A DNA stretch of 64,000 nucleotides from Streptomyces sp. NBC_00440 (GTDB taxonomy: Bacteria > Actinomycetota > Actinomycetes > Streptomycetales > Streptomycetaceae): NCBI RefSeq assembly GCF_036014215.1, contig NZ_CP107921.1:8305501-8369500 (forward strand), read 5' to 3'. Within the stretch, counting starts at the first letter, position 1, and each line of letters begins with the position of its first letter. Under the pieces are notes generated by a model. That model was given only the letters and a program-made list of their open reading frames with translations, was not told where the DNA came from and did no database searches. A program made the translations under genes and the position numbers. Positions 16,795 through 52,995 of this stretch are shown piece after piece.

Positions 16795-16848
16795 GTCGTG
16801 TCCGGCGGATCATGGATGGCCGCTGCCCACTGAGACTAGGGTCTGGCC

Positions 16849-17142
16849 ATGGGATCGATGGGGGATGGTTTCCGCAGTCGTTGGGCCATCGTGGCTAGGA
16901 CGCTGGTCAAGCGTCCGTGGCTTTTCGCGAGCTGGGTTCTGCTCGCAGTTCTGGCGGTTGCCGCCCTGAAGATCGTGCCGCAACCGTGGAGCGCGGGCGT
17001 CTGTCCCGTTTGTCTTGTTTGTCGCGCTGCTGCTGATTTCTCGGACGCCGCATCAGAAGGGGTGATTCCACTCCGGGCCGAAGCCAGAGTCGGATCTGCG
17101 GCCGTGACGGTGCCATGGAAAACGTACGCCCGCTTGTCGTAA
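16849..17142 (+). CDS. Small membrane protein, passenger of the truncated element (frame uncertain)
   Basis: The frame starts MGSMGDGFRSRW and has a transmembrane segment (FASWVLLAVLAVAALKIV). A second hydrophobic segment (FVLFVALLLIS) appears around 17003-17040 in another frame, so a frameshift may have broken a two-TM protein. No family is recognised. It lies between an IS end and the tail of the transposase, in the same position as the passengers of the other elements. Confidence 0.4.
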   Translation: MGSMGDGFRSRWAIVARTLVKRPWLFASWVLLAVLAVAALKIVPQPWSAGVCPVCLVCRAAADFSDAASEGVIPLRAEARVGSAAVTVPWKTYARLS

Positions 17143-17168
17143 CGGGTCGGTGCGCCACGAGGCGCCAT
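17070..17168 (-). pseudogene. 3' end of an IS5-family transposase
   Basis: The minus strand encodes PTRYDKRAYVFHGTVTAA and, after a frame change, IRLWLRP. The intact transposase at 52062-52949 ends with nearly the same text ([22 protein letters not shown]). Everything upstream of this tail is missing. Confidence 0.75.
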
Positions 17169-17339
17169 GGAATCGAGTGAGGTGAGAGACCTTCACCACC
17201 GAGGATCCCTTCCGGACGAGTCCATCTGCCGTGATCTTCGTAGCGGGCGGGCGGTAGCCACTGCGACGTGCTGGGCACGGCATTGGTCCATCCAATGGGT
17301 AAGTAGCACTTTTGTCTGGCGCCTCGGAGGTATCAGGCA

Positions 17340-17527
17340 TCAGAAGGCGGGGCGCGGACCCGTCCATCTCCAAGTAGGCCGCCCTTGCGGAGTTCTGCCA
17401 GCAGGACCTCATGGAGGCGGGGCCATACCCCCGCTTCGGTCCAGTCCTGCAGACACCTCCAGGCCGTCACTCCGCTGCAGCCCGAACTGTTCCCCGGGGA
17501 CGTCCCGCCAGCTCACCCCAGGACTGC
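17340..17527 (-). pseudogene. Fragment of a second type of IS5-family transposase
   Basis: The minus strand encodes SWRDVPGE and then WTEAGVWPRLHEVLLAELRK with a frame change between. This is the segment after the N-terminal domain in IS5 transposases of the WTEAGVWPRLHEVLL type. It abuts the truncated end of the IS3 OrfB, so this IS5 copy probably caused that truncation. Confidence 0.7.
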
Positions 17528-18255
17528 CTGCCGAGCAGTTCGTTCTTCAACGTCGAGAAGGACGACTCCGCCAGGGCGTTGTCCCAGCACTGTCCGGTGC
17601 GCCCCACGGGCAGGCGGACGTTCAACTGCGCCGCGAGTGGGGCGAGTTCGTGACTGGTGTATTGGCAGCCGCGGTCGGAGGGGAAGATCACGTGCTCTGT
17701 CGGTCGACGGGTGCGGCAGGCGGTGGTGAGGGTGTCGGCGACCAGGCTCGTGCGCAGGTGGTCGGCGGTGGTCCAGCCGACGACGCGGCGGATGTCGATG
17801 ACGGTGGGTAGGTAGAGCCAGCCCTCGTCGGTGGGGATGTAGGTGATGTCGCCGCACCAGCGCGTGTCAGCGCCGGCAGGGTTCGGCTGGAAGTCGCGTA
17901 GGACCAGGTCTGGGCGGATGGCCGCTTTGGGGTCCGGGATGGTGGTGCGCTGGCGGCGTCGGTGTGTGATCCCGGTCAGATCCGCCTGCTGCATCAGTCT
18001 GGCGACCCGCCGTCGCCCGCAGACAGTGCCGTCGCGGTTGAGGGCGGCCTTCACGCGCGGGGAGCCGTAGGTGTCTCGGGAGCGAGCGTGGACCGCACGG
18101 ATCTTCTCGGTCAGCTCAGCATCGTCACTGGTGCGGGCGCTGGGGCCTGAGCGGCGGGCGAAGTAGGCGGCACGGGAGACCTTCAGCAGCTCACATGCGC
18201 GTGTGACGCTGGGGCCTGCCTGCTTCTCCGCCTCGATGAACGGGTGGACGTTCAC
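17467..18255 (-). pseudogene. IS3-family transposase OrfB, 3'-truncated
   Basis: The protein has the IS3 OrfB features: CELLKVSRAAYFARRSG, HTH_21 region GRRRVARLMQ, and an rve core with the catalytic residues in GDITYIPT, FPSDRGCQYTS and ALAESSFSTLKNELL. After LLGRQSWG (about 17528) the text changes into the adjacent IS5 fragment. About 40 C-terminal residues (normally EGWYNxxRxHSxLGYxSP) are missing. GTG 18255 overlaps the OrfA stop (GTGA). Confidence 0.85.
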
Positions 18256-18560
18256 CGGGTCTCCTGCGCGAAGAAAGCCGTGGCTCGCTTGAGGACCTCC
18301 ACGTCCTCGCGCAGACGGCGGTTCTCCCGCCGCAACGCGGCCAGCTCGTCACGTTCGTTGCCGGTCAAGCCATCCCGCTCGCCGGCGTCGACTTCTGCTT
18401 GCCGGACCCAGTCACGCACCCGGGTCTCGGCCAGGTCGAAGTCCGTGGCGACCTGGCCGATCGAGCGGTCGCCGCGGCGGCACAGCTCAACGATCTCGGC
18501 CTTGAACTCCGGCGTGAACGAGCGGCGAGCGCGACGAGGCGTCTTCCCCATGCTCTCCAT
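18252..18560 (-). CDS. IS3-family transposase OrfA
   Basis: The HTH/leucine-zipper protein of IS3 elements: RRSFTPEFKAEIVELCRRGD, RVRDWVRQAE and ELAALRRENRRLREDVEVLKRA, the last being the coiled coil that mediates dimerisation with OrfB. ATG 18560 is chosen because GGGAGG lies 9 nt upstream. It overlaps OrfB by 4 nt. The OrfB partner is truncated, so the element is inactive. Confidence 0.85.
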   Translation of the reverse strand: MESMGKTPRRARRSFTPEFKAEIVELCRRGDRSIGQVATDFDLAETRVRDWVRQAEVDAGERDGLTGNERDELAALRRENRRLREDVEVLKRATAFFAQETR

Positions 18561-18820
18561 GATGGACATCCTCCCGGGGACGAACCCCCGATCTCGAATG
18601 TCCGCCAAACCGGAGCAAGCTCAAACCGCCAAGCTTATGGCCGGGCATGCACGAGTCTGTCCGGGCCGACCTGACGGTCCAGGCGGCGTCCGGCGGACCC
18701 CGCCCCCTCTGTTCGGGTGAACCGGAGACCGGTCGGTCGTGTGGGAACGTCTTACCGGCGTGGCGTGGTCTTCGGTGCGGGATACAAGGCGGAAATCCTC
18801 ACGGAAGGCTCCTCCATCTC

Positions 18821-20356
18821 ATGCGTCCTCGATTCCTGCTCGCCACCACCCGCGCGGCGACCGCTGCCGCTGCCGGCCTGTCACTGGTCCTGACCGCACC
18901 TGCCGCCTCGGCCAGACCAGGCGGCGGTGATCACGAGCCCTGGGTACTGCGGAGTGCCGCACAGCGCACGGACGCCAAGGCGTTCCGTTCGCTGTGCGGC
19001 AAGCAGAAGGAGGGCAGACCCGAGCGTCGTACCTTCCCGCTGTTCGAGCACGGTAAGCCCTTCACCGCGGTGCAGGACTTCCAGCGACTGGACAAGAACG
19101 GCACGGTGTACTGGAGCGGCCACGACCCGAAGAATGTCCAGAAGACCATCTCGGTGTCCGTGATCGGAGCCTGCGGCAAGGGGCCGGTCACGCTCTCCGG
19201 CACGATCGAGGCCGGCTTCCGCCAGTACGCCTATGAGCCGCTGGCGAAGCGGCCGGGCTGGTACATGCTGAAGGAGATCGACCCCCTGAAACTGCCGCCC
19301 AACGGGCACGGTGTCGACACGGTCGACGTCCGCGCGACAAAGCCGAACAAGCCACACAAGCCCGGTACGAGGGCCGCCACGCCGAACAATCCGGCAGCCA
19401 TCGACATCGTCGCGGCCTACACCCCGGCCACTGTCGCCGAACTCGGCAGTGTCTCGGCGGTCGTGTCCCGTATCAACTACGGCGTGAACCAGCTCAACAG
19501 GGCGCTCGCGGACAGCAATGTGCCGGCCAGCGTGCATGTCATCAACACCTACGAGACCGCGGCCACCGGGGTCCATCGCGAGAACGTGAACACGCTGCTG
19601 AGCATGATCAGCAGCCCTACAAACACGGTCCTCGGCAGCGCGGCCGCATCCCAACGGCTGCTGTACGGCGCCGACCTGGTTGCGTTGTTCGCCTCCGTCC
19701 CCGCGGAGGACAGTTCCGGGGCGTCCGACCTGCCCACTCCTCGCCCGTCAGCGGCAACCTCCGGTGCCGCGTTCTCGGTCACCAGTATTTTCTCCGTGAC
19801 GGCATGGGAGAACCTCGCACACGAGATCGGCCACAACTTCGGCATGCAGCACGACCGCCTGACGTACATGAGGCAAGGCTCAACGCCGCCCGAGGGCTCG
19901 TCCAACTACGGCTGGATCACGCCCGACGGACAGCACCGCACGCTCATGGCCTACTCCAACGCCTGCCCCCAGGCGTGCAACGTCGTCAACGAGTACTCCA
20001 ACCCCGACAGGTTCTGGGGCAACCAGCCTCTCGGCGACGCCATGAACAACAACGCAGCCGTCGCACGGCAGAACGCCGACATCCTGGCCGCCTACCGTGC
20101 CCCCACAAGGCCCGTGAACCGCCACTCCCTCACCGTGTCCGTCACCCCGAACACCGGCGGCACGGTCAGGATCAGCGAATTCGGTCCGTACGATCCCAAC
20201 ACGCGGGTCACCGTCAGCGCCTTCCCCAACCCCGGCTACCGGTTCGACGCCTGGGCGGTCGACGGCGTGGAATTGGCGGGAAGCAACCCGAGCCACGAGA
20301 TCACCATGAACGCCAACCGGACCATCAACGCGCTGTTCGCCCCGATCGGGTCGTAG
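18821..20356 (+). CDS. Secreted reprolysin-like zinc metalloprotease with C-terminal repeat domain
   Basis: ATG 18821 opens a Sec-type signal peptide (RPRFLLATTRAATAAAAGLS to the ASA|RPGG site). The metzincin zinc motif HEIGHNFGMQHD lies near residue 334, followed by MAYSNACPQACN containing the Met-turn. The last 80 residues (SLTVSVTPNTGGTV, PGYRFDAWAVDG, NRTINALFAP) form a divergent InlB-B-type bacterial repeat, often an adhesion or substrate-binding module. An acggaagg RBS sits 13 nt upstream. It is predicted to be extracellular. A propeptide of about 170 residues precedes the catalytic domain. Confidence 0.88.
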   Translation: MRPRFLLATTRAATAAAAGLSLVLTAPAASARPGGGDHEPWVLRSAAQRTDAKAFRSLCGKQKEGRPERRTFPLFEHGKPFTAVQDFQRLDKNGTVYWSGHDPKNVQKTISVSVIGACGKGPVTLSGTIEAGFRQYAYEPLAKRPGWYMLKEIDPLKLPPNGHGVDTVDVRATKPNKPHKPGTRAATPNNPAAIDIVAAYTPATVAELGSVSAVVSRINYGVNQLNRALADSNVPASVHVINTYETAATGVHRENVNTLLSMISSPTNTVLGSAAASQRLLYGADLVALFASVPAEDSSGASDLPTPRPSAATSGAAFSVTSIFSVTAWENLAHEIGHNFGMQHDRLTYMRQGSTPPEGSSNYGWITPDGQHRTLMAYSNACPQACNVVNEYSNPDRFWGNQPLGDAMNNNAAVARQNADILAAYRAPTRPVNRHSLTVSVTPNTGGTVRISEFGPYDPNTRVTVSAFPNPGYRFDAWAVDGVELAGSNPSHEITMNANRTINALFAPIGS

Positions 20357-20580
20357 ACGTCTCCCACGTCTCAACAGCCCAGGGCAGAGCCACGGCACGA
20401 TCGTGCGCCGGCCGCGATCGCGAAGCAGATACCCGGCACGCCCGGGCCACGTTGCGACCTCAGCCGGCGTCGCCCCCGCGTCGTGAGGAAGCCCCTCGGG
20501 CCGAACGACAGGTGCCCATGGACCCCGGCCAAGACGTCCGTTCCAGCGGTCATTGCAACGCCCCGGTTCAGGGGGATGCG

Positions 20581-20760
20581 ATGCGCTTCGAGAGCCGGGA
20601 GCTGCGGACCGTGGCTCAGGAACGCATGCAGTTGTCGCATGATCGGGAGGCGTACTTCCCGCTCATGCAGCAGGGCGTCAGCGCCACCAAGGCATGTCAG
20701 ACCGTCGGCTCTGGCTCGAAGACCGCCCGACGATAGTGCGACGGACGCAACGTCGTCCGC
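20581..20760 (+). pseudogene. IS30-family transposase N-terminal remnant
   Basis: The frame reads REAYFPLMQQGVSATKACQT and then RKQK after an in-frame stop. This matches the HTH start of IS30-type transposases (EREAYFxLMQQGxSxxxACRxVG...TGRRW). The stop at about 20735 and the loss of the rve domain show it is dead. Confidence 0.55.
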
Positions 20761-20763
20761 AAG

Positions 20764-20806
20764 CAGAAGGCGGCATCCCCGGTTCGACCGGCGATGCCGC
20801 CTTCTG
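20764..20806. terminator. Perfect 14-bp stem, probable bidirectional terminator
   Basis: CAGAAGGCGGCATC (20764-20777) pairs exactly with GATGCCGCCTTCTG (20793-20806) around a 15-nt loop that can itself pair CCGG with CCGG. There is no long T tract, which is usual in Streptomyces. It lies between the IS30 remnant and the small membrane-protein gene. Confidence 0.6.
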
Positions 20807-20958
20807 GCGCGTCCAGCGACTTAGAAGTCATCTCATTTGGCTTGTCTGCCATGACAGGTGGGTGGGGTGATGTTCGGGCGAGGGCGGATGTGGTTGGCCG
20901 AGGTGTAAGACTTGCCAGTATGGATATGGGGCGTCAGTCGCGGTGGGAAAAGGACGCG

Positions 20959-21174
20959 ATGACGGTAGAGATCGTTTTCGCCCTGGTGACGGCCGCCCTG
21001 CTGGCTGCAACCGTATTCGTCGTCGCGCTGGTTCTCGTGCTGGTCTTCGGCATCTCTGGTGCGGCGCGGGATGGCGTACTGGTGGCAGGTGCGCTGGTGG
21101 GAGCGGCATTCGGAGTATGGCGCCTGGTCCGGGTGCTGCGTCGGTTCGATGCCCATCGCCGCGAAGGACGCTGA
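20959..21174 (+). CDS. Small two-TM membrane protein
   Basis: A 71-residue protein with two hydrophobic helices (VFALVTAALLAATVFVVAL and a second around GVLVAGALVGAAFGVW) and a basic C-terminus (RRFDAHRREGR). AAAAGGA lies just upstream of ATG 20959. No family is recognised. It is followed by an IS5 fragment on the same strand, so it might be another element passenger, but no paired ends were found. Confidence 0.5.
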   Translation: MTVEIVFALVTAALLAATVFVVALVLVLVFGISGAARDGVLVAGALVGAAFGVWRLVRVLRRFDAHRREGR

Positions 21175-21200
21175 TGCTCCGGGGCCGATAGCCTGCTGCG

Positions 21201-21400
21201 GTGGGGATCGTTGAGCCGTTGGTGCCGGATGAGTTGTGGGCGTTGTTTCAGCGGGTAGTGCCCAAGGCGCCCTCGCGGCCTCAGGGCGGTGGGCGGCGTC
21301 GGCATGGTGATCGTGAGGTGCTGGCCGCGATCGTGTTCGTGGCCACGTCGGGCTGTACGTGGCAGCAGTTGCCCGCAGCTTCATTCGCAACGGGCCAACG
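21201..21400 (+). pseudogene. IS5-family transposase N-terminal fragment
   Basis: The frame encodes GIVEPLVPDELWALFQRVVP, RPQGGGRRRHGDREVLAAIV and SGCTWQQLPAASF. This is the N-terminus of a common Streptomyces IS5 transposase. Homology ends near 21400; the rest of the gene is missing. Confidence 0.75.
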
Positions 21401-21843
21401 CCGGTCGGTGGGGCGAGGTCGAAGTCCATACGGGCATGATCCAAAAGGATCTGTCAACGAGCCACGAAGGGCCATCCGGTCCCGACAGGTTACAGAGCGT
21501 AAGAGCTCCACAGAAGTTGGACCAGAACCTGAGTTTGGGAGGCACGGGGACTCCTGCCAGGACAGCATCGCGGTGCTCCTGGTGAGAGGTGCTGGTCATG
21601 CGCCAGATGAAGGTCGACTGGTGTGACGCCGTCGGCCGCTGGCGGGATCAGGAAAGATCAGGCAGGAACCAGCCGGGGTACCTCCCGGACGTAGACGTGT
21701 ACGAGTCACGAACCACAGCCGTCTCTGAAGTCGGCGAACGCGAGGACTCGTTCGAACGCTCTGGATTATGCTCGCGGCGACGGTCCACGTTCGCGGTCCA
21801 GGCGGCACTGGCCAGGCCGCCGTTCAACAAGCATGGGGGAAGT
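21401..21843. other. No supportable gene
   Basis: Only scattered open frames. The last 100 bases probably hold the promoter of the I36-type gene. I could not place -35 and -10 boxes with confidence. Confidence 0.35.
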
Positions 21844-22188
21844 ATGCGCAAGTTCATCGCGTCCGCCGCAGGTGCCACTCTCGCTCTGGGGGCCCTTGGC
21901 CTCGGCCTGGCGCCCACTGCGTCCGCGGCGGCGCCCTGCCCGTCCGGCGCGGTCTGCATCCGCGAGCCGGACGGCAGCATCCTGCCCAAGAACATCTTCT
22001 ACCAGTACGGCGCGCACAACTTGGAAAAAGTGCTCGGCGTCCGCGACGTCGTGAACAACCAGACCGGCGGAGCGGGTTACCAGATCTGCCGGGGGTACAA
22101 CGGCACCAACTGCGGCGGCGTCAACCGTCTGGTCACCACCATCTCGTACGACATGACGCCGGTGAACTCGGTGGTCCTCGTGAAGTGA
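21844..22188 (+). CDS. Secreted peptidase-inhibitor family I36-like protein
   Basis: A 114-residue precursor with a Sec signal (MRKFIASAAGATLALGALG... to TASA|AAPCPS). The mature domain has four cysteines: CPSGAVC near the start, and IC and NC in QICRGYNGTNCGG. This pattern is that of the I36 (SMI-like) proteins abundant in Streptomyces, which inhibit metalloproteases. GGGGGAAG lies 1-8 nt upstream of the ATG. A metalloprotease gene lies 1.5 kb upstream. A hairpin terminator follows. The inhibitory role is inferred from the family. Confidence 0.8.
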   Translation: MRKFIASAAGATLALGALGLGLAPTASAAAPCPSGAVCIREPDGSILPKNIFYQYGAHNLEKVLGVRDVVNNQTGGAGYQICRGYNGTNCGGVNRLVTTISYDMTPVNSVVLVK

Positions 22189-22211
22189 CGCCGCTGTCCT
22201 GACGCGGCACC

Positions 22212-22251
22212 AGGTGCCCGCCCCCGTCGTTCGCGGCAGGCGCGGGCACCT
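22212..22251. terminator. Hairpin terminator between convergent genes
   Basis: AGGTGCCCGC (22212-22221) pairs perfectly with GCGGGCACCT (22242-22251), leaving a 20-nt loop. It lies 24 nt after the I36-type gene and just beyond the end of the convergent broken gene, so it can serve both. Confidence 0.65.
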
Positions 22252-22265
22252 GTGCGTCCTGGGTC

Positions 22266-22880
22266 AGGTGGCGTCGAAGCGGGCGACGTGGGAGATGGAG
22301 ACACGGGGCATCGGCTCCGATGCTCACGGTCGTGCTCTTGCCGCTGGAGTCCTGCACGGCGACCTTCTGTGAGGTGACGATCTCGATGCAGAAGCCGGTG
22401 CCGCAGGGGAAGACCGGCCACTGGAACGCCGTGCCGCCGGGCCCGATGAGGGAGACGCGCTGGCTTGTGGTGACGAACCGCAGCCCGGGGTCGCTCTGCC
22501 GGCACACCGAGCTGGCCTTCTGGGTGCGGCCGTCGATGCTGATGGACGCGTTCGAGGGAAGCCACGGATGAACAGCTCCGCACACGCGGTGCACGGGTCG
22601 AGTACGCCGTTCGAGCAGTCGCGACCGGTGAGGTTCTGGTAGAAGCGGAAGAGGGTGTTCTCCAGAGGCTGGACGTGGGTCTCGATCTGAATGTACGGGA
22701 CCCCTTCGGCCTGCCGCGGGATCGACAGCGGGGAGACCGTGGCGACCGTGCGCCAGGCCGCGTACGGGCGATCCGGGTAGCAGCGGTCGACCGGCACGGG
22801 CACCGCCGGCACGGGCGAGGGGAAGGGGCAGTGCGGGTTGTCCTCGCACTGCCGCCCAGCAGACTCTCGCCGCCGCCGAG
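22266..22880 (-). pseudogene. Broken gene for a Cys-containing protein of unknown family
   Basis: Three consecutive frames on the minus strand read as one protein: CYPDRPYAAWRTVATVSPL and FRFYQNLTGRDCSNGVLDPC in the first, ISIDGRTQKASSVCRQSDPG and FPCGTGFCIEIVTSQKVAV in the second, and VSISHVARFDAT with a stop in the third. The breaks fall near 22558 and 22318; each is explained by one base lost or gained. I do not recognise the family. The 5' end is not defined: no start codon with RBS was found upstream. Confidence 0.5.
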
Positions 22881-23217
22881 GACGGCGACAGGACCCCGTA
22901 TCTGGAACCGTCCTTGGACCTGGCGCCTCAACGCCAGTCCAGCGCTCAGCGCCGCGCGGATGCCGTCAGTTTCCGTCGATATCCGAGAGCAAGTTGATCA
23001 ACGAACGCCTCCGTAACTCGTCGATAGACGCTGTTCCTGGAGAGGCTCTGGCACAGATTTCGTTGTCCCGTCTCACTCAATAGAGTCACTTTCTCAACGA
23101 ACCGAGTCGTTCGTCCTTCTGTCTCAGCGAACCTGGTCGCGCGGCTGAGTGGCTGGGGTGCTGGATGGCCATACCCCGGCTGGGGTGAGTCTGAAGGGGC
23201 GGTCCCTGGCGGGGGTC
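22881..23217. other. No supportable gene
   Basis: AT-richer than its surroundings, with several near-repeats of TCTCAACGAA/TCTCAGCGAA (about 23090-23135). No coding frame stands out. It may hold the promoter of the broken gene on the minus strand. Confidence 0.3.
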
Positions 23218-23598
23218 TCAGTCACTATGGGCGACCGACCCAGGGTCGGCGTCGAGCGCATCGAGCACTGCGTCGCCGTTCGCCCTGGCCCACTCGGTCA
23301 GCATGTGGATCGGCTCGATCAGCGTGGCCCCGAGCGAGGTGAGCTCGTACTCGACGCGGGGCGGCGCCTCGGTGTAGGCGTGGCGGCGGATGAGTCCGTG
23401 CGCTTCGAGCCGTCGGAGCGTCTGGGTGAGCATTTTGCGGGAGATGCCGCCGATCAGCTCGATCAGCTCGCCGTGGCGCACCGGGCCCTTGCTGAGGCCG
23501 TAGAGCACGACCACCGTCCACTTGTCGGCGATCACCTCGACCGCCAGCCGCGCCGGACAGTCGGCGAGAAAGGGATCGCCGGGACAGAAACCGCTCAT
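23218..23598 (-). CDS. HxlR-family winged-helix regulator
   Basis: The protein starts MSGFCPGDPFLADCPARLA and has the HxlR winged helix: IADKWTVVVLYGLSKGPVRHGEL, GISRKMLTQTLRRLE, GLIRRHAY and PPRVEYELTSLG. Cys5 and Cys14 fit the redox- or electrophile-sensing type. ATG 23598 is the natural family start. It is divergent from a quinone oxidoreductase gene, a common HxlR target, but that gene is truncated by an IS element. Two direct repeats in the gap are the probable operator. Confidence 0.88.
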   Translation of the reverse strand: MSGFCPGDPFLADCPARLAVEVIADKWTVVVLYGLSKGPVRHGELIELIGGISRKMLTQTLRRLEAHGLIRRHAYTEAPPRVEYELTSLGATLIEPIHMLTEWARANGDAVLDALDADPGSVAHSD

Positions 23599-23603
23599 GC
23601 GCC

Positions 23604-23630
23604 AAAGGTACCTGCGCCGAAGGTACCTGC
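23604..23630. promoter_or_regulatory. Direct repeats, probable HxlR operator
   Basis: AAAGGTACCTGC (23604-23615) and GAAGGTACCTGC (23619-23630) are spaced 15 bp apart and each holds the palindrome GGTACC. They lie between the divergent HxlR and quinone-oxidoreductase starts, 6 nt from the HxlR start codon. Confidence 0.55.
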
Positions 23631-23687: not shown

Positions 23688-23853
23688 ATGCGAGTCATCA
23701 CTCAGCAGACGTTCGGCGGTCCCGAGGTGCTCACCATCGTGGACGCGCCCGAGCCCCAGCCCCTCCCCACCGAGGTTCTCGTCCGCGTCAAGGCGATCGG
23801 GCTGAACCCGCTGGAGGCGCTCCTGCGCGCCGGCGAGTTTCCCCCGCTGCTAG
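23688..23853 (+). pseudogene. NADPH:quinone oxidoreductase, truncated after 55 codons
   Basis: The start MRVITQQTFGGPEVLTIVDA and VLVRVKAIGLNPLEALLRAG are typical of zinc-independent quinone oxidoreductases of the medium-chain family. The reading frame is cut at the CTAG where the IS5 element begins. The rest of the gene is not on the other side of the element, so a deletion accompanied the insertion or followed it. Confidence 0.8.
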
Positions 23854-23908
23854 GCAGTGTCTTCAAAGATCTTGCCAAGATGGCGCGGTAGCTGAGCATG
23901 ATGCCTTG

Positions 23909-24214
23909 GTGGAACATCTTTCTGTCGACGTGCGCGCTTCGCTCCGGCTCTTCGCTTTCTACTTGGCGAACGGCACCCTCGACCTGGACCTGCTCGAAGG
24001 GTTTGACTATCGCTCGACCGTTTTTCACTCCGGCTCCTCGTTGGAACAGGTCTTCGCGATCTATAGCAATGTGCTGCAAATCGACACCGACGGCATGGTG
24101 CTGAACGACGGAGACGCGCAGTACCGGGTCGCGCAGTGGGTCCGAGTGTGCTGCGACCCGAGCTATCGGGTCGAGCCGCCCTTCGATGCCTGGGAGACGG
24201 AGCTCCATCTCTGA
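23909..24214 (+). CDS. DUF7677-like protein, passenger of an IS5 element
   Basis: The frame encodes LSVDVRASLRLFAFYLANGT, SSLEQVFAIYSNVLQIDTDG, AQYRVAQWVRVCCDPSYRVE and ends PFDAWETELHL. This resembles the small DUF7677 proteins of Streptomyces, whose function is unknown. GTG 23909 (or TTG 23906) is the first usable start; there is no strong RBS. It lies wholly between the terminal repeats and is convergent with the transposase, with a gap of 25 nt. Confidence 0.65.
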   Translation: MEHLSVDVRASLRLFAFYLANGTLDLDLLEGFDYRSTVFHSGSSLEQVFAIYSNVLQIDTDGMVLNDGDAQYRVAQWVRVCCDPSYRVEPPFDAWETELHL

Positions 24215-24239
24215 TGACCCGGCGTTCACCGTCAGAACA

Positions 24240-25087
24240 TCACGCCCACATCAGGAGCGACGCGAGAGTGACGGCTGCATGGAAGGACTCCGCGGTCTTG
24301 TCGTAGCGAGTGGCGATGCCGCGCCACTGCTTCAGCCGATTGAAGCAGCGTTCCACCACGTTTCGCTGCTTGTAGCGCTGCTTGTCGAAGGCCGGTGGGC
24401 GCCCGCCGCGACTGCCGCGCCGGAGCCGGTTTTGGACCTGGTCGGCCCGCTCGGGGATGGTGTGACCGATGCTGCGTCGTCGCAGCCAGGTGCGGATGGC
24501 CCGGGAACTGTAGCCCTTGTCGCCCAGCACGTGGGAGGGTCGTACTCGGGGCCGCCCCGGGCCGATGCGAGGCACTCGTATCGCTTCAATCACCGCAGTG
24601 AACTGGGTGCAGTCATTGGTGTTGCCGCCCGTGAGCGTGAAAGCGAGCGGACGGCCGGCACCGTCGCAGGCCAGATGGATTTTGCTGGTCAGGCCACCTC
24701 GGGAACGTCCGAGTGCGGGGCTGCGGAGCCCCCTTTTCGTGCCCCGGCGGCGTGCTGGTGGGCGCGGACGACGGTGGAGTCGACCGACACGAGCCAGTCG
24801 ACGTCCCCGTCCGCGTCCGCCCCGGCCTGGGCGGCCTGCAGCATTCGCTCGAACGTTCCGTCCAGAGCCCACCGCCGGAACCGGGTGTGCAGTGTGGCCC
24901 ACGGACCGTACCGGTCGGGCACATCCCGCCAGGCCACCCCCGTCCGGAACTTCCACACGATCCCGTTGAGCACCATGCGATCGTCCAGCCGCTTCCTACC
25001 CCGCAGCGGCCTGGGCAGCAGGGGCCGGACGAACTCCCACTCGGCATCCGACAGTTCATGGCGACGTATCACGACACCATGATCCAC
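24240..25087 (-). CDS. IS5-family transposase made by -1 frameshifting of two overlapping frames
   Basis: Frame 1 starts at 25087: ELSDAEWEFVRPLLPRPLRG, MVLNGIVWKFRTGVAWRDVP, the first Asp in LVSVDSTVVRAHQHAAG. Frame 2 continues [20 protein letters not shown], the second Asp in VLGDKGYSS, the Glu in NVVERCFNRLK and RGIATRYDK. The switch is at CGAAAAGGGGG near 24735-24745, a run suited to -1 slippage and known from IS5-type elements. All DDE residues are present. The frame ends at 24240, just short of the passenger gene. Confidence 0.85.
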
Positions 25088-25116
25088 CAGCGGTGATCAT
25101 TTGAAGACACTGCCTA

Positions 25117-25335
25117 GTGGAGCGCCAGTTGCACCGGGAGCGCCTCGACCAGTGGATGGGGTACGGCTTCCGGCTGCTTGAGCACGTGATCGTGGTGGGG
25201 TTCGGCTTGGCCTTTGTCTGGCTGGGGTTCTACGCCGTGGACCACAAGGTGTCGACGCAGGTCGTGCCCATGATCGGTGGGGGCGTGGCGGGGCTCGCGG
25301 GGGCGGTGCTTGCTGTGCGAAACCGGCGTGAGTAA
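25117..25335 (+). CDS. Small membrane protein next to the IS5 element, possibly 5'-truncated
   Basis: The frame begins with GTG in the CTAGTGG border of the element and encodes RLDQWMGYGFRLLEHVIVV, a hydrophobic helix (GFGLAFVWLGFYAVD) and a second (GGGVAGLAGAVLAVRNRRE). No family is recognised. Because the start coincides with the element border, the original N-terminus may be lost. Confidence 0.45.
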   Translation: MERQLHRERLDQWMGYGFRLLEHVIVVGFGLAFVWLGFYAVDHKVSTQVVPMIGGGVAGLAGAVLAVRNRRE

Positions 25336-46150: not shown

Positions 46151-46202
46151 GCGGATCCCGTGCCGCCCCGCCGGCGAAGCGGCCGGTCGGCCCGACCCGG
46201 TG

Positions 46203-46418: not shown

Positions 46419-46591
46419 GGCACCACTCCTGAGGTGGGGGAGACGCGGGCATGCGTGTCCCGATACGTGCGGAGACGGCACGGTGTTCGGCCGGTCCGTG
46501 TCTCTCATGAGTCGGTCGGTGGCGCGTCAGGGTTCCCCTGTGTCGCAGCCGTCACTCTGACCGGTCGAGGGCGAGTTCCGGTCTCACGGGA

Positions 46592-46880
46592 GTGGAGGAG
46601 CAGCACTTCGTCGGGCTGCGCGACGTATTGGGGCACGCCGCGCAGGCTGGTGGTGAGGTGGAGGCCACGCTGGTGCGGCTGTCGGCGCCTGGCGAGGTGA
46701 CGTGCTTCTTCGGCACCAGGGTCGTCGCGCCGACAGCGTGGGAACCCACCTGGGGCGACCTTCTGATCGTTCCCGCCGGCGGCGATGGGCTGATGGGAGA
46801 TCCCGAAGTCCTGCGGGACCTCGTGCGGGCACAGGCGGCGGGCGGAACGTCGGCACCGGTGCGGCCCTCGTACAGCGCAT
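46592..46880 (+). pseudogene. Protein-like stretch of unknown family, possibly a truncated gene
   Basis: From GTG 46592 the frame reads GLRDVLGHAAQAGGEVEATL, FGTRVVAPTAWEPTWGDLLI and PEVLRDLVRAQAAGG, which looks like real protein. After about 46870 the text becomes arginine-rich nonsense that overlaps the membrane-protein gene in another frame. I see no domain. It may be a broken gene between copZ and the Met-rich protein. Confidence 0.3.
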
Positions 46881-46940
46881 ATGCCGCATCTCATGCATGC
46901 GGCCCCAGTGCTTCGCGGCGCCCACGGGCAGTGCCAAGAT

Positions 46941-47714
46941 GTGGCTGTGTCTGTCAGCCGGGTGTCTCGCGCGTCACGCGCCGCGGTGTTCGCCGCCGTG
47001 AGCGTCGTACTCGCTGCGCTGGGGCACGTGCTGATGTCCGGTACGCCGCTGCCGTGGCCGGTACTGGCCCTGGCGGCCGCCGGGACGGGACTTTCCGGCT
47101 GGGTCTTCGCGGCCAGGGAACGCGGGCGGCACACCGTGATCGCCCTGACGGTAGCGGTGCAGGCGTGCTTGCACGTCGCCTTCACGCTGGCGCAGTCGCT
47201 CGCGAGTCCGTCTCCCGCATCCGGCATGTCCTCGTCGGCCGGCCCCCAGCAGTGGGGCCGCCTGCTGCTGTGCGGCAATCCCACGCCCGAGGCGGCGGCA
47301 CGTGCCTACGACCTGGTGGTGCAGAACGGCCTGACGCGCCAGATGCACCTGCCGCCTGCCCGGAGCGGCGACCCGATGTCACACGACATGGCGGGCATGC
47401 ACTCCATGGCCGGCATGCATCACATGGGAGGAATGTCGGGAACTGCGTCGTGGGGCATGCTGGCCGCGCACCTGGCCGCCGCGCTTGTCTGCGGGATCTG
47501 GCTGGCGCTGGGGGAGCGGGCGACGTTCCGCGTCCTGCGGGCGGCCGCCGACCGGGCCTTCGTACCCTTGCGGTTGATCCTTGCCGTCTGGCCGGTCAGC
47601 GACGTCCCCCCGCCTGTCCGGCACGCCGTCCCCATCGTGCGGCGCCTGCAGTCGCGACTACTCGTCCACACCCTTACGACCCGAGGTCCACCCGGAGCGC
47701 CTGCTGTCGCATGA
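46941..47714 (+). CDS. Membrane protein with Met/His-rich loop
   Basis: About five hydrophobic segments (AAVFAAVSVVLAALGHVLM, LALAAAGTGLSGWVFAA, VIALTVAVQACLHVAFTLA, MLAAHLAAALVCGIWLAL). Between the third and fourth lies a loop with repeated MAGMHSMAGMHHMGGM, a likely Cu(I) site. The overall type resembles Streptomyces membrane proteins found with PepSY/DUF5134 genes. GTG 46941 or 46947 are plausible starts; no strong RBS. It stands upstream of the sigma-factor gene. Confidence 0.7.
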   Translation: MAVSVSRVSRASRAAVFAAVSVVLAALGHVLMSGTPLPWPVLALAAAGTGLSGWVFAARERGRHTVIALTVAVQACLHVAFTLAQSLASPSPASGMSSSAGPQQWGRLLLCGNPTPEAAARAYDLVVQNGLTRQMHLPPARSGDPMSHDMAGMHSMAGMHHMGGMSGTASWGMLAAHLAAALVCGIWLALGERATFRVLRAAADRAFVPLRLILAVWPVSDVPPPVRHAVPIVRRLQSRLLVHTLTTRGPPGAPAVA

Positions 47715-47891
47715 CAGCCGGTTCCACGTGCCCGGCAGCTGACCGCTGCCCGGACGTGCTCCCCGTGCACGCGCCTGCGCTGCACGGCTTTCATCCCGAT
47801 TTCCCGTGACGCGCCCGTGAGGCGTGCGGCGACCTGTGCCGACGGCCTGTCACGTGTGCGCGGAGCGGGATCCGAGAAGGGACCCCGGGCA

Positions 47892-48491
47892 ATGACTCCT
47901 GCCCTGCCCGCGGTGACCGACGAAACGGTCACCGCCATCGCTCTCGCCGCCGCGCGCGGAGACAGCGACGCAGCAGAACGATTCGTGCGCGCACTTCAGC
48001 TGGACGTGCGCCGATTCGTGACGTACCTGGCCCAGGACGCGCAAGCAGCGGACGACCTGACCCAGGACACGTTCCTGCGTGCCCTGTCGAGCCTGCACCG
48101 ATTCGAGGGCCGCTCGTCGGCCCGCACCTGGCTTCTGTCCATCGCGCGCCGTGTGGTGGCCGACAGTATGCGACGTGCCGCGGTGCGGCCACGTATCGCC
48201 GACACCGCCGACTGGCAAGGCGCCGCCGAGCGTACGCAACCCAGGGGGCTGCCCGGCTTCGATGACGGCATCGCTGTCATGGAACTCATCGACGCGCTGC
48301 CACCGGACCGCCGCGACGCGTTCATGCTCACGCAACTCCTGGGCCTGTCCTATGCGGAGGTCGCGGTTCTGGCCGGTTGCCCGGTGGGCACAGTGCGCTC
48401 GCGCGTCTCAAGGGCGCGCGTGTTTCTGGTGCAGTGCTTGTCCGATGCCGCGTCGCTGCCTGACGAGGCGTCCGAACTCGTCGCGGCCTGA
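47892..48491 (+). CDS. ECF-type RNA polymerase sigma factor
   Basis: Region 2 (VRRFVTYLAQDAQAADDLTQ, DTFLRALSSLHRFEGRSSAR, TWLLSIARRVVADSMRR) and region 4 (IDALPPDRRDAFMLTQLLGL, SYAEVAVLAGCPVGTVRSRV) are complete in 199 residues, with no extra domain. GAGAAGGGA lies upstream of ATG 47892. No anti-sigma gene is adjacent. Its neighbours are copper-type membrane proteins, so it may direct their transcription in response to copper or envelope stress; that is an inference. Confidence 0.9.
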   Translation: MTPALPAVTDETVTAIALAAARGDSDAAERFVRALQLDVRRFVTYLAQDAQAADDLTQDTFLRALSSLHRFEGRSSARTWLLSIARRVVADSMRRAAVRPRIADTADWQGAAERTQPRGLPGFDDGIAVMELIDALPPDRRDAFMLTQLLGLSYAEVAVLAGCPVGTVRSRVSRARVFLVQCLSDAASLPDEASELVAA

Positions 48492-48592
48492 CCTCGCGTA
48501 GGCCGACGCCGACCCTTTCCTGTCGTGTCGCTGCTGTTGCGTACGGCAGATCCGGGCGGCGTCGGCCGTCTTCCCCCGCGCACCTCTTCGAC

Positions 48593-48606
48593 GTGACCCC
48601 GGTCAC
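48593..48606. promoter_or_regulatory. Perfect 14-bp palindrome upstream of the PepSY gene
   Basis: GTGACCCCGGTCAC (GTGACC-CC-GGTCAC) lies 94 nt upstream of the PepSY start and 101 nt after the sigma-factor stop. It could be an operator; no regulator is assigned. A chance palindrome in GC-rich DNA cannot be excluded. Confidence 0.35.
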
Positions 48607-48700
48607 GCCAAGACGGATGGAACTCGTCCGCCCGCGCGTCCGACCACTACACCGGACCGCCTGGAGCGGTGGACAACGTTCCGTTACAGAAAGGCCCGTT

Positions 48701-50191
48701 ATGGCGGAAAGCCACACAGCGCAAGCTGCGACGGACATATCCACAGCAGATCCCGGCCTGAACGTCCCAGAGGCCGGCCACGAGGAGAGCGTTCACGGAC
48801 GGATCGCTGAAGCCGCTACGTCGTCGGGCGGCTCCAAGCCTCCCGTGTCGTGGAGCGGGTTGCGTCCCCTGCTGCTTCGCCTCCACTTCTACGCCGGCGT
48901 CGTCATCGGCCCATTCCTGCTCGTCGCGGCCATCACAGGGCTGATGTACACCGCGACACCGCAGATCGAGGCGGTCGTCTACCGCCACGAACTCAAGGTC
49001 ACCCCGCACGGCGAGGCTGAACCGCTCTCCGCCCAGGTGGCGGCGGCACGCAAGGCGGTCCCCGAGGGCACGCTGTTCTCGGTGGCCCCGGCCACCGGCC
49101 GCACGGACAGCACCCGCGTGGTCTTCGACAAGCCCGGCCTGCCCGACAACTACACGCAGACCGCGTTCGTGAACCCTTACTCCAGTGAAGTGCTCGGCCA
49201 GGAGCGGACGTTCGCCGGGTGGTGGCTCCCGGTCCGAGCCTGGGTGGACGGCTTCCACCGGCACCTCAACCTCGGCGAATTCGGCCGCAACTACAGCGAA
49301 ATCGCCGCCAGCTGGCTGTGGGTGGAAGTCCTGGGCGGCCTCGCCCTGTGGCTCACGGCCCCGCGCTCACGCCGGCGGCTGCGGCGCGTGCTCGTGCCCC
49401 AGGGCGGTGCGAAGGGGCGCCGACGCACCATGTCCTGGCATGCCACCGTCGGCGTCTGGGCCTCGATCGGTCTGCTGGGCCTGTCCGCGACCGGCATGAC
49501 CTGGTCCGTGCATGCCGGGGCGAGCATCGGCAAGATCCAGTCGGCGCTGGCCGGACCGACCCCGGCGGTGTCCACAACCCTGCCCGGACGCGCCGCCGGG
49601 AAGGAGTCCGCATCGGTACCCGTGAAGGACGTGGGGATCGACGCGGTCGTGGCCTCCGCGCACGCGGCCGGACTGCGCGGCGTACTCGATGTGACACCGC
49701 CGACCAAGGATCAGACCACGTACGTGGTCAAGGAGAACACCCGCAGCTGGCCAGAACGCCACGACACCGTGGCCGTCGACCCCGCCACCGGTAAGGTCAC
49801 CGACCGCGCGAACTGGGCCGACTACCCGCTCCTTGCCAAGATGACGAACTGGGGTATCGACGCCCACATGGGCCTGCTGTTCGGACTCGCCAACCAGATC
49901 GCGCTCGCTCTGCTCGCCGTCGCCCTCATCGGCATGATCCTGCGGGGCTACCGCATGTGGTGGCTGCGCAGGCCGACCCGCACCGAAGGCTTCGTGCTCG
50001 GCCGGGCACCGGCACGAGGTGCCTGGCGTCGCCTGCCTGGCTGGTTCCTGGCTCCGGCCGTGCTACTGACCGCCATGATCGGCTACTACGTCCCCCTCTT
50101 CGGCCTGCCCCTGCTGGCTTTTCTGGCTGTCGACCTGATCATCGGCGCGCGCCGCCGGCGCCGCACCGAGCGTACGGAGGTGGCCGCGTGA
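48701..50191 (+). CDS. PepSY-associated TM protein
   Basis: A 496-residue membrane protein of the PepSY_TM type: LLLRLHFYAGVVIGPFLLVA and AITGLMYTATPQIE in the first helix, VDGFHRHLNLGEFGRNYSEI and AASWLWVEVLGGLALWL next, WHATVGVWASIGLLGLSATG, and a last pair (NQIALALLAVALIGMILRGY). Conserved histidines (LHFYAG, FHRHLN, SWHATVG, DAHMGLLFG) resemble haem- or metal-coordinating sites. AGAAAGG lies 6 nt before ATG 48701. Family members occur with iron or copper uptake and reductase systems. The DUF5134 gene overlaps its stop. Confidence 0.88.
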   Translation: MAESHTAQAATDISTADPGLNVPEAGHEESVHGRIAEAATSSGGSKPPVSWSGLRPLLLRLHFYAGVVIGPFLLVAAITGLMYTATPQIEAVVYRHELKVTPHGEAEPLSAQVAAARKAVPEGTLFSVAPATGRTDSTRVVFDKPGLPDNYTQTAFVNPYSSEVLGQERTFAGWWLPVRAWVDGFHRHLNLGEFGRNYSEIAASWLWVEVLGGLALWLTAPRSRRRLRRVLVPQGGAKGRRRTMSWHATVGVWASIGLLGLSATGMTWSVHAGASIGKIQSALAGPTPAVSTTLPGRAAGKESASVPVKDVGIDAVVASAHAAGLRGVLDVTPPTKDQTTYVVKENTRSWPERHDTVAVDPATGKVTDRANWADYPLLAKMTNWGIDAHMGLLFGLANQIALALLAVALIGMILRGYRMWWLRRPTRTEGFVLGRAPARGAWRRLPGWFLAPAVLLTAMIGYYVPLFGLPLLAFLAVDLIIGARRRRRTERTEVAA

Positions 50192-50844
50192 TCAACGCGA
50201 CCGGACTGAGGTGGATCCTCACCGCACTCTTCACCTTTCCCGCCCTCTACGCGCTGTGGTCGACGGCAGCGCCGGGCCGTACGCCGGCCAACCGGGTGGA
50301 GCACACCCTCCACGCCGTCATGGGGTTCGCGATGACCGCGATGGCCTGGCCCTGGGGCATGGACCTCCCCGCCGGTCCACAGATCGTCGTCTTCTCCGCA
50401 GGAGGGGTGTGGTTCGCCGCCGCTGCTCTGGCCCGTGCCTCGCGGGCGAACACCCGCACCGCCGCACTGGTGGCCGCGCTGCCCCACATCGTGATGATGG
50501 GGGCCATGGCCTGGATGGCAACCGTGATGAACGGATCAGGGATGGCCGCCGGCGCGGGCGGTGCGGGCCACGACATGCCGGGAATGGACATGGCCGGCAC
50601 CAACGCCACCAGCGCCATGACCCTGTCCCGGGCCGGCGACCAGTGGACGGCCTGCCTCCTCGCAGTCGCTCTCGTAATCCTCGGACTGCGCTGGCTGGCC
50701 CAGGCGTTCGACCACGGGCGCGTCGCCGTTACTCCTGCCACCCCCCGCGGCACCACCGCGCTCCTTCACAGCGAAGCCTCCGAGCCCGCCTGCCACGCGG
50801 CGATGGCCGTCGGGATGGGGGTGATGCTCGTCCTGCTCGTGTGA
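50188..50844 (+). CDS. DUF5134 membrane protein with Met/His-rich segment
   Basis: Several hydrophobic helices (LRWILTALFTFPALYALWS, HAVMGFAMTAMAWPWGMDLP, AALPHIVMMGAMAWMATVM) and a Met-rich segment GHDMPGMDMAGTNA that looks like a copper site. The pattern HTLHAVMGFAMTAMAWP is characteristic of DUF5134. GTG 50188 overlaps the PepSY stop (GTGA) and has ACGGAGG upstream, so the two are translationally coupled. The function of the family is not known. Confidence 0.82.
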   Translation: MINATGLRWILTALFTFPALYALWSTAAPGRTPANRVEHTLHAVMGFAMTAMAWPWGMDLPAGPQIVVFSAGGVWFAAAALARASRANTRTAALVAALPHIVMMGAMAWMATVMNGSGMAAGAGGAGHDMPGMDMAGTNATSAMTLSRAGDQWTACLLAVALVILGLRWLAQAFDHGRVAVTPATPRGTTALLHSEASEPACHAAMAVGMGVMLVLLV

Positions 50845-51061
50845 CGACGGTGCGCGGGTCGCTGATTCCCCTTTTCCAGGAAGTCGTTCGGGGACCGCTT
50901 GAGGTTCCCGAACGACTCCCGCCCACGGAAGCATGTGGGGCGCGACGCAGCGGTCATCGCTTCGGGCGTGCTCCCGCTCCATGGCCCGTGGCCGCGTTCG
51001 TCGAAACACCGCCGGGTATGACCGCAGCACGCCGTCACAACTGCGCAAAGGGAGCTGGGAC

Positions 51062-51277
51062 ATGAACGATCTTACGGGCCTCCAAGAGGTGGCGACCTTC
51101 TGCGGAAACTGCAACTGCGGTTTCCCCCAGCTGTTCATCGACCCCCAGGCACCGGAGGAGCGCCGCATCGTGATCACCGACGACTTCGGCCAGCGCGTTC
51201 AGATGAGCGCCGACCAGTTCTCCTCGCTCGTCGAGGAGGCGAAGGAAGGGAAACTGGACGCACTGATCACGGCATGA
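51062..51277 (+). CDS. Small CxxCxC protein
   Basis: A 71-residue protein with CGNCNCGFPQLFID near the start and VITDDFGQRVQMSADQFSSL, VEEAKEGKLDALI towards the end. The CxxCxC triad suggests metal binding or a modified peptide. AAGGGAG lies 8 nt before ATG 51062. Similar short proteins with FCGxCxCGxP occur in Streptomyces, but I know of no assigned role. It follows the DUF5134 gene by 217 nt on the same strand and ends 43 nt before the IS5 element. Confidence 0.65.
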   Translation: MNDLTGLQEVATFCGNCNCGFPQLFIDPQAPEERRIVITDDFGQRVQMSADQFSSLVEEAKEGKLDALITA

Positions 51278-51424
51278 CAGGGCGGGCACGGCACCCTGAA
51301 TCGCGTCGCAGACGCTTAGGGCCTGTCCGGCGGATCATGGCGTGGGCGAGGTTCCCCACCTTTGTCTCTGGAGCCAGTCCAACAGGCCGGCGACGTGATC
51401 CACCGGACGCCGTAGGGTGATCGT

Positions 51425-52030
51425 GTGGACGTATCTGAGGTGTTGGGGGAGCAGGATGCGCTGCGAGCCGAAGCGGAGGGCGTATATCGGGAGCTCCGGC
51501 TGGACAAGCTGCTGGCCGATGTCGGCACTCCGACCATCGTCGGGAGCGCGGCGCTGGGCCTGATGGTTCGTCGGGATCTGGATCTGGACGTGGTGTGCGA
51601 GCGTCTGGACGATGCTGCCGTGGCGGCCGTCGCCGCGGTCGGTGCTCGGCTCGCGACTCACCCACACGTCCGTCTTGTGACCTTCCGCAATGACTGCGGG
51701 GCGTGGAACCGGGAGCCGGACGCCTACCCCGACGGCCTGTACCTCGGTGTGGAGTGTGTATCGTCCGGGGCCGCCTGGAACCTCGACGTCTGGTTTCTCG
51801 ACGAGCCCGAACGTCAGCCCTCGACCGCCCACCTGACTACCCTGCGCCCGCGTCTGACGGACGAGAGCCGCGCGGCCATTATCGAAATCAAGCGGACTTG
51901 GGCCGACCGTCCCGAGTACGGCACGACTGTCAAGAGCTTCGACGTCTACCGCGCGGTCCTCGATGACGGCGTCCGCGATTCCGCACGGTTTGAGACCTGG
52001 GTCGGGCAACGGAAGAAGCCGCAGCCCTGA
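51425..52030 (+). CDS. Nucleotidyltransferase-like protein, passenger of an IS5 element
   Basis: The text TPTIVGSAALGLMVRRDLDL followed by DVVCERLDD resembles the nucleotidyltransferase-fold motif GS...DxDxxV seen in minimal and toxin-type NTases and lincosamide-type enzymes; later LDVWFLDEPE and IIEIKRTWADRPEYG. 201 residues, intact. GTG 51425 is the first in-frame start. It lies entirely between the terminal repeats of the element. A role in resistance or toxin-antitoxin biology is possible but not shown. Confidence 0.65.
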   Translation: MDVSEVLGEQDALRAEAEGVYRELRLDKLLADVGTPTIVGSAALGLMVRRDLDLDVVCERLDDAAVAAVAAVGARLATHPHVRLVTFRNDCGAWNREPDAYPDGLYLGVECVSSGAAWNLDVWFLDEPERQPSTAHLTTLRPRLTDESRAAIIEIKRTWADRPEYGTTVKSFDVYRAVLDDGVRDSARFETWVGQRKKPQP

Positions 52031-52061
52031 GTACTACGCCGTGCAGGCTTCGAGCGGCGGA

Positions 52062-52949
52062 TCACGTGCGGAGCCAGAGCCGGACCGCGGCAACGGTGAC
52101 AGTGCCGTGAAAGATGAAGGCGCGTTTGTCGAATCTCGTAGCCACGGCCCGGAAGTTCTTCAGTGTGTTGATCGTCCGCTCTACTTCGTTGCGGCGCTTG
52201 TAGATCGTCTTGTCGAAGCCGGTGGGTCGACCACCGTGGCTGCCGCGCCTTTTGCGGTGGGCCCGTTGGTCCTTCGGTTCGGGGATGGTGTGCTTGATCT
52301 GGCGTCTGCGCAGGTAGCGGCGGTTGCGTCGGGAGCTGTACGCCTTATCGCCGCCGAGATGGTCCGGCCGGGTCCTGGGGTGCCCGCCACCGCGGCGGCC
52401 GACGCGGATGCCTTCCATGACCGGGATGAACTGCGGGGCATCGCCCCACTGGCCTGGTGTGATCAGCAGGGACAGCGGGCGGCGACTGCCCTCCCCAGCG
52501 AGGTGGATCTTGCAGGTCAGTCCGCCCCGGGAGCGTCCGAGTCCCTCGTCGGGGCGGTGCTGCCGGGGCGTGCTTCTTTTTCCCGGCACACGCGGAGGTC
52601 TCTTCCGCGCTCCGGCAGAGTGCTGGTGGGCCCTGCAGGACGTCGAGTCCACGCTCACCATCGACCAGTCGATGCGACCTTCAGCATCAGCGTCGGCCAG
52701 GACAGCTGCGAAGATCTTGTCCCACGTGCCGTCCGGCGACCAGCGTCTGTGCCGCTCGTACGCGGTCTTCCACGGGCCGAAACGCGCAGGTAGATCCCTC
52801 CGAGGCACTCCCGTGCGCTGCCGGAAGAGGATCCCGTTAATCACCCTTCGGTGGCTCGCCCAACGACCTCCACGCTGACCGGACTTCGGCAGATGCGGTT
52901 TCAGCCGTGTCCACTCGTCGTTCGTCAGATCTCCCCGCCCCATGTCCAT
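52062..52949 (-). CDS. IS5-family transposase, intact
   Basis: Full single-frame transposase: [50 protein letters not shown], first Asp in [12 protein letters not shown], second Asp in [14 protein letters not shown], Glu in [12 protein letters not shown] and the tail [18 protein letters not shown] 52949 or 52943 (MGRGDL). All DDE residues are present. The tail matches the fragment at 17070-17168, showing that both belong to one element family. Confidence 0.92.
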
Positions 52950-52995
52950 GCCAACGAATCGAGAGCGAAGTGGTCACATGATCCGCCGGACAGGC

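What the first reader, a model, noticed from the sequence alone, without database searches (positions are those of the whole stretch)
16799..52995. Recurrent IS5-family layout: passenger gene convergent with the transposase inside the terminal repeats
Four elements (9877-10927, 16799-17168, 23854-25113, 51321-52995) share the same plan: end, unrelated small gene, transposase reading toward it, other end. The passengers are VOC, small membrane protein, DUF7677-like and nucleotidyltransferase-like proteins. Two elements share 16 bp of end sequence yet carry different passengers, which suggests passenger exchange. Passenger-carrying IS (transporter IS) are an established idea; a set of IS5 elements with a fixed convergent passenger slot is, as far as I know, little described.
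Basis: partly seen in the sequence, partly recalled or inferred. Interest (0 to 1): 0.8.

Follow-up and report, generated by a model that had tools for sequence, protein, structure and literature searches.

The report
Insertion sequences with swappable passenger genes
In Streptomyces, some lineages of a very small jumping element carry an extra host gene just behind the gene for the jumping enzyme, and that gene has been swapped repeatedly, so these elements move small genes between genomes and plasmids.

Summary
The layout is real and general, but less uniform than described. Element 3 has seven near-identical copies in its own genome, each with its DUF7677 gene. Element 4 recurs end to end at 99.3-99.4% in six Streptomyces plasmid records (three opened; three different sites), with its nucleotidyltransferase-like gene. 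Element 1 has a broken transposase; element 2 is a one-ended remnant. For element-4-type transposases (nearest named IS: IS1648), 108 non-duplicate elements had ends assigned: 79 carry a passenger (43 protein clusters), 29 do not; 28 further loci stayed unresolved in one of two sets. Nine passenger families tested show purifying selection. Turnover is visible: L074 and L075 have 93% identical transposases but different genes, and L075 keeps a stub of L074's gene. Passenger forms tend to keep a decayed inner left end at the transposase stop, which suggests that the left boundary moved outward to a second end-like sequence, enclosing a neighbouring gene (inferred). Convergent orientation is common, not fixed. 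Transporter ISs and the modular IS231 subgroup are precedents; this is a new IS5-type variant with a downstream, repeatedly refilled slot.

The parts
9868..10936 (.). Element 1: IS5-type element with VOC passenger, transposase broken; flanks CCAG and CTGG
   Evidence: inverted ends and frames; relatives with the same VOC gene and end
9913..10407 (+). Element 1 transposase remnant (internally deleted, frame-broken)
   Evidence: frames; DUF4096 in its first part
10429..10884 (-). Element 1 passenger: VOC / Glyoxalase_6 protein, convergent
   Evidence: Pfam
16795..17192 (.). Element 2: truncated remnant (left end, doubtful ORF, transposase C-terminal piece at about 17097-17192 on the minus strand)
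23854..25113 (.). Element 3: complete unit, CTAG on both sides, seven copies in the genome
23906..24214 (+). Element 3 passenger: DUF7677 protein (102 aa)
24240..25087 (-). Element 3 transposase in two frames (24689-25087 and 24240-24956)
   Evidence: frames; DDE_Tnp_1 in 24240-24956; both frames align to element 4 transposase
51320..52996 (.). Element 4: complete unit, flanks TTAG (51316-51319) and CTAG (52997-53000); six plasmid records at 99.3-99.4%
51425..52030 (+). Element 4 passenger: 201-aa protein, nucleotidyltransferase-like by motif (recalled); no Pfam match
52051..52068 (.). Inner vestige of an old left end, overlapping the transposase stop codon
52062..52949 (-). Element 4 transposase, 295 aa (DUF4096 + DDE_Tnp_1)

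Best explanation
These are transporter insertion sequences: IS5-type DDE elements that carry one or two host genes between the transposase stop codon and the left terminal repeat and transpose as a unit, leaving 4-bp YTAR (mostly CTAG) flanks. Shown by sequence: paired ends, whole units in several copies, one empty site, many unrelated passengers, purifying selection on tested passengers, and passenger turnover between close relatives. Inferred route: in the passenger-free form the left end overlaps the transposase stop codon. Its tip decays, the transposase pairs the right end with a second end-like sequence further out, and the DNA between becomes part of the element; the old left end stays as a vestige. 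Later rounds replace the gene inside conserved borders, and the two ends stay matched by selection or conversion. I give about 0.5 to outward movement of the left end as the main capture route and about 0.95 to the rest.
For: Whole-unit copies: element 3 seven times; element 4 in six plasmid records, the three opened lying at different sites; L049/L099 and L112/L113 pairs with 100% identical transposase and passenger at different sites. Empty site for L049: 490-column alignment at 81%, no gap at the junction. 79 of 108 end-assigned elements carry passengers, 43 protein clusters. Turnover: L074/L075 with a 97-bp stub of the old gene; MST/DinB stub in L160. Passenger dN/dS medians 0.13-0.32 in nine families. 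Ends of one element match each other better than shuffled ends: 4-nt tip 3.19 of 4 against 2.45, 0 of 5000 shuffles. Inner vestige: 3.87 of 9 against 2.51 (sd 0.28, maximum 3.11) at other offsets in 47 elements; nearly intact inner ends with a changed tip in L124, L156 and L300.
Against: The outer left end shares nothing with the right end beyond the repeat, so its source is unknown. L074/L075 look like replacement inside fixed borders, not an end shift. Neither the end-shuffle nor the vestige test corrects for relatedness between elements. Many inner ends are too decayed to recognise one by one. 28 of 101 loci of the unnamed-genome set stayed unresolved. No transposition was observed.
Confidence: 0.8

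Rival explanations
1. Internal insertion and replacement: genes enter the interval between transposase and left end by illegitimate or homologous recombination; the left end itself never moves.
For: L074 and L075 share about 45 bp at the left border and the inner border but differ in the gene, with a stub of the old gene left in L075. L160 keeps an MST/DinB stub beside the transposase.
Against: It does not predict a second, inner left end at the transposase stop, which is seen above background and nearly intact in L124, L156 and L300.
Confidence: 0.35
2. Collapsed composite transposon: two IS copies flanked a gene and one lost all but its end.
For: It would supply the outer end and an inner vestige (inference).
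Against: In 48 passenger forms the outer end shows no extended similarity to the right end (positions 18-48: 0.03-0.40), and by eye none of the printed outer ends continues into the transposase 3' end as a left end would. A deletion right at the repeat would hide this.
Confidence: 0.12
3. The passengers are accessory genes of transposition itself.
For: Purifying selection on passengers and their constant place.
Against: 43 unrelated clusters; passenger-free forms have spread, including identical copies in one genome (L110/L111); element 4's passenger has a 90% identical relative without IS ends and 363 homologues.
Confidence: 0.03
4. Chance adjacency: host genes happen to lie between unrelated end-like sequences.
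For: Some accepted ends are weak: six of 47 match only 14 of 18, and three of 47 controls reach 14; 12 clusters have no clearly coding top ORF.
Against: Multicopy units, YTAR flanks on both sides in 36 of 47, an empty site.
Confidence: 0.01

Closest known systems
Transporter ISs (tIS)
   Same: ISs with passenger genes unrelated to transposition inside the ends; passages seen in PMC9330008, PMC7986276, PMC3129680.
   Different: Those passages describe the class; none describes one slot behind an IS5-type transposase refilled with tens of gene families.
IS231 subgroup of the IS4 family
   Same: Called modular because many members have extra DNA with diverse putative passenger genes between a terminal repeat and the transposase gene (PMC2266710, passages).
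   Different: Other family; there the extra DNA lies between the left (upstream) repeat and the transposase, here behind its stop codon. The paper said this modular aspect had not yet been seen in other IS families.
IS1648 (S. coelicolor plasmid SCP2)
   Same: Nearest named IS: 76.9% DNA identity to the element 4 transposase stretch, same ends and CTAG flanks.
   Different: The SCP2 copy is passenger-free.
Integron gene cassettes
   Same: One position filled by many small, mostly single genes (analogy only).
   Different: Here a DDE transposase moves gene and enzyme together; integrase and attC sites were not searched for.

Membership tests
IS5 family | DDE transposase of the IS4/5 type | tested here: met
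   DUF4096 and DDE_Tnp_1 over the Pfam cut-offs for element 4; DDE_Tnp_1 for the second frame of element 3
IS5 family | Short terminal inverted repeats and 4-bp YTAR flanks (that this marks an IS5 group is recalled) | tested here: met
   36 of 47 passenger forms with YTAR on both sides; elements 3 and 4 in the window
IS5 family | Place within the ISfinder groups | not testable with these tools
   ISfinder not on hand
Transporter IS (tIS) | Passenger gene unrelated to transposition between the ends | tested here: met
Transporter IS (tIS) | Passenger moves with the IS | tested here: met
   by sequence only; no transposition assay
IS231-type modular IS | Passenger between the upstream (left) repeat and the transposase of an IS4-family element | tested here: not met
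   slot lies behind the transposase stop; IS4/5-type DUF4096 transposase; the IS4 YREK motif was not tested
Composite transposon | Two IS copies flanking the cargo | tested here: not met
   one transposase; no IS sequence beyond the repeat at the outer end
Integron | Integron integrase and attC sites | not tested
   no search was run for them

The most novel reading that the evidence does not exclude
Several IS5-type lineages in Streptomyces act as a general capture system for single genes. The transposase tolerates end-like sequences further out, so the left boundary hops outward, encloses a host gene and leaves the old end as a scar; repeated rounds give a cassette-like gene pool shared between lineages and, through at least one Planomonospora element, beyond Streptomyces.
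Probability: 0.45. Interest if true: 0.78.

Novelty: new variant of a known kind. Interest (0 to 1): 0.63.

Why it matters
It shows single-gene traffic by very small transposons that annotation hides: all six closest plasmid records list an IS5 family transposase and a hypothetical protein side by side. It makes the question of how ISs acquire cargo testable, because forms with nearly intact inner ends exist. It points to a pool of small, selected genes, several of them enzyme families that often act on small molecules, moving between Streptomyces chromosomes and plasmids.

Tried and rejected
Collapsed composite: no IS sequence beyond the outer repeat. A defence role: 10 passengers scanned against PADLOC, 9 without a match, one (AAA_33 kinase) with two weak hits. 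NCBIfam for 10 passengers: none matched. Joined flanks of the window's element 3 gave a chimeric ORF, so they are not an intact old site. Joined frames have no chance control: 6 of 46 tested gave an open frame, five of them with YTAR on both sides, L100 without.

Counting choices. L123 was dropped (inner end looks intact). L125 and L130 were counted passenger-free for the same reason although an outer match exists. L072 was counted passenger-free, yet another scan puts its outer end 1446 bp away and its duplicate L184 agrees. Some of the 26 passenger-free loci rest on the inner end alone, with a left-right match under 14. L162 was removed as a duplicate of L158; a later look found an MST/DinB gene and misplaced coordinates. 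L156 and L160 joined the MST cluster through the stub in L160, so 43 clusters would be 44 if separated. Eight G-set loci were dropped as duplicates or refetches. The two high decoys (18 for L166, 17 for L229) both come from one place in L220, itself a locus with such a transposase; it is probably a real end, not proved. Six of 19 element-1-type loci reached only 13 of 20, the control level. One search also scanned a wrong-frame ORF of element 3 (24613-25059), without a match.

Not in print as far as searched: ten library searches over open-licence PMC papers; subscription papers and ISfinder were not available. Eight papers were seen as passages, the others as listings; none was read in full.
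Full report
WHAT IS IN THE WINDOW. The window lies near one end of the larger contig of an 8.68-Mb genome in two contigs. Element 3 (23854-25113) has perfect inverted ends with CTAG on both sides, a DUF7677 gene and, convergent with it, a DDE transposase in two frames. The genome holds seven copies at 99-100% identity, each with passenger and CTAG/CTAG. Plasmid relatives of the whole element exist at 89.0% (S. scopuliridis) and 83.8% (S. microflavus). Element 4 (51320-52996) has ends matching 19 of 20, a 201-aa passenger and a 295-aa transposase. The 1679-bp stretch recurs at 99.3-99.4% in six plasmid records; four of the six plasmids are of similar size (543-550 kb) and may hold the same insertion, but the three that I opened have different neighbours and YTAR flanks. 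Element 1 (9868-10936) has the same plan with a broken transposase. Element 2 is a remnant without a right end.

ELEMENT-4 TYPE. Loci came from DNA searches in 150 and 392 genomes of the genus, which overlap, from 60 further stretches and from 80 named loci of one genome-contig scan, the best 80 of 348 relatives. Of 80 named loci, 61 gave a scored pair of ends, 46 with 15 or more of 20 matches. After 11 duplicates between the sets were removed, 108 elements remain: 79 with passenger, 29 without. In the passenger-free form the left end overlaps the transposase stop codon. In passenger forms it lies 319-1929 bp away, median 649. Decoys of the accepted named passenger forms score 0-14 of 20, with one 18, for L166.

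OTHER LINEAGES. Element-3 type: of 36 loci examined, 9 carry passengers (7 of them own copies), 13 have the left end 12-22 bp past the stop and 14 are unresolved; these numbers are my reading of the listing. G005 holds a second DUF7677 copy. L030 in G134 carries the passenger family of element-4-type L075 (48% protein identity), although the two transposase genes are 60% identical in DNA. Element-1 type: of 50 loci, 19 covered transposase start and stop, and 13 of these reach 14 or more of 20 with the end over 470 bp past the stop; the control is 12-14, so several are weak. The best are L266 (20), L329 (19), L327 and L324 (18) and L265 (17). Passengers of this type are VOC, DUF1877, DUF5713, GNAT and SnoaL_2 proteins and one without a Pfam match, among the six scanned.

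WHAT THE PASSENGERS ARE. Element-4-type passengers form 43 protein clusters, 30 of them with one member. Pfam finds SnoaL_2, DUF6624, mycothiol-S-transferase/DinB, alpha/beta hydrolase, GNAT, AAA_33, methyltransferase, HU, Imm7, SDR and TetR, DUF1062, erythromycin-esterase family, SUKH-4, metallo-beta-lactamase fold and thioredoxin; others have no match, the window's own 201-aa passenger included. By codon score 24 clusters are convergent, 7 co-directional and 12 unclear. Median dN/dS is 0.13-0.32 in nine families, three of them resting on one or two pairs. Element 4's passenger has a 90% identical DNA relative in G070, where no IS end was found with up to 3 mismatches; the match runs from about 59 bp before the gene to 12 bp before its end. 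It has 363 homologues.

EXCHANGE. L074 and L075 have 93% identical transposases and share about 45 bp at the left border, yet carry different genes; L075 keeps 97 bp (88% identical) of the 3' end of L074's gene. L160 carries TetR and SDR genes and keeps a stub of about 63 residues of the MST/DinB passenger beside the transposase; L156 has the same genes and a shorter similar stub that was not itself a hit. On a tree of 73 transposases (quick method; 21 of 67 inner branches starred, 21 open) the passenger state changes at least 30 times and presence against absence 10 times; no shuffled baseline was computed. Passengers are more alike than transposases in L048/L049 (95 against 87%), L089/L109 (82 against 75%) and L126/L142 (87 against 81%), without a sharp breakpoint, so these are weaker than the stubs. 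The own genome holds two truncated relatives with other passengers, L299 and L300.

HOW IT PROBABLY WORKS. Shown by sequence: the unit moves. For L049 an empty site exists in G023 (1 of 81 genomes searched had the gene; its frame there holds one TGA): the joined flanks align over 490 columns at 81%, the 10 gap columns lying far from the junction. Joined flanks of 46 elements gave an open frame in 6. The two ends of one element match better than shuffled ends, 3.19 against 2.45 of 4 in a tip not used for choosing ends, 0 of 5000 shuffles as high. Inferred: the left boundary moves outward. At the place of the old left end passenger forms match 3.87 of 9 against 2.51 (sd 0.28) at other offsets; the first three positions of the tip are near chance (0.26-0.49), positions further in reach 0.66-0.81, partly because the stop codon lies there. 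L124, L156 and L300 have nearly intact inner ends with changed tips. Against it: the outer end has no similarity to the right end beyond the repeat, its source is unknown, L074/L075 look like replacement inside fixed borders, and relatedness was not corrected for. Both routes may occur.

WHERE IT OCCURS. Of 394 genomes of the class, 28 match the transposase at E 1e-60 or better, 20 of them in the window's genus. Of the eight outside, one locus each was examined: six passenger-free (L282, L289, L291, L293, L294, L295), one with an end 641 bp past the stop (L270) and one unresolved (L292). A named Planomonospora locus (L166), its end also 641 bp past the stop, carries a passenger that clusters with the AAA_33 proteins of L057 and L065.

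COMPARISON. Passenger-carrying ISs are known as tIS (passages). The nearest precedent is the IS231 subgroup of the IS4 family, called modular for diverse putative passengers between left repeat and transposase (passages). The nearest named IS is IS1648 on SCP2, passenger-free. Ten library searches gave no IS5-type group with an exchangeable slot behind the transposase; that speaks for that library only. Verdict: a new variant of a known kind, well supported in structure, open in mechanism.

Noticed in passing
L299 (G000:C1:183700-188700), locus position 2032: A left end of the element-4 type followed by a broken relative of the L061 passenger; no transposase was detected in this 5-kb stretch: another one-ended remnant in the own genome.
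   Followed up: partly
L300 (G000:C1:3486000-3490500), locus positions 1737-2710: Truncated element with transposase C-terminus, nearly intact inner end, a DUF1062-type passenger (88% to L163) and an outer end that sits in a palindrome.
   Followed up: partly
window 23688-25335: The flanks of this copy of element 3 join to a chimeric ORF (oxidoreductase-like start, membrane-protein-like end), so DNA next to it has been rearranged.
   Followed up: partly
L316 and L317 (genome G023): Two loci of an element-1-type element with 100% identical GNAT passengers in one genome.
   Followed up: no
L030 / L301 (G134): This element-3-type passenger form has an end-like sequence next to the transposase stop that looks like a decayed inner left end; it was not tested statistically.
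   Followed up: no
L307 (plasmid SCP2, AL645771): The annotated IS1648 transposase is listed as two CDS over the stretch that matches the single-frame transposase of element 4.
   Followed up: no
L010 and L011 (own genome): Two copies of element 3 share the same right flank, which suggests insertion into the same place of another repeated sequence.
   Followed up: no
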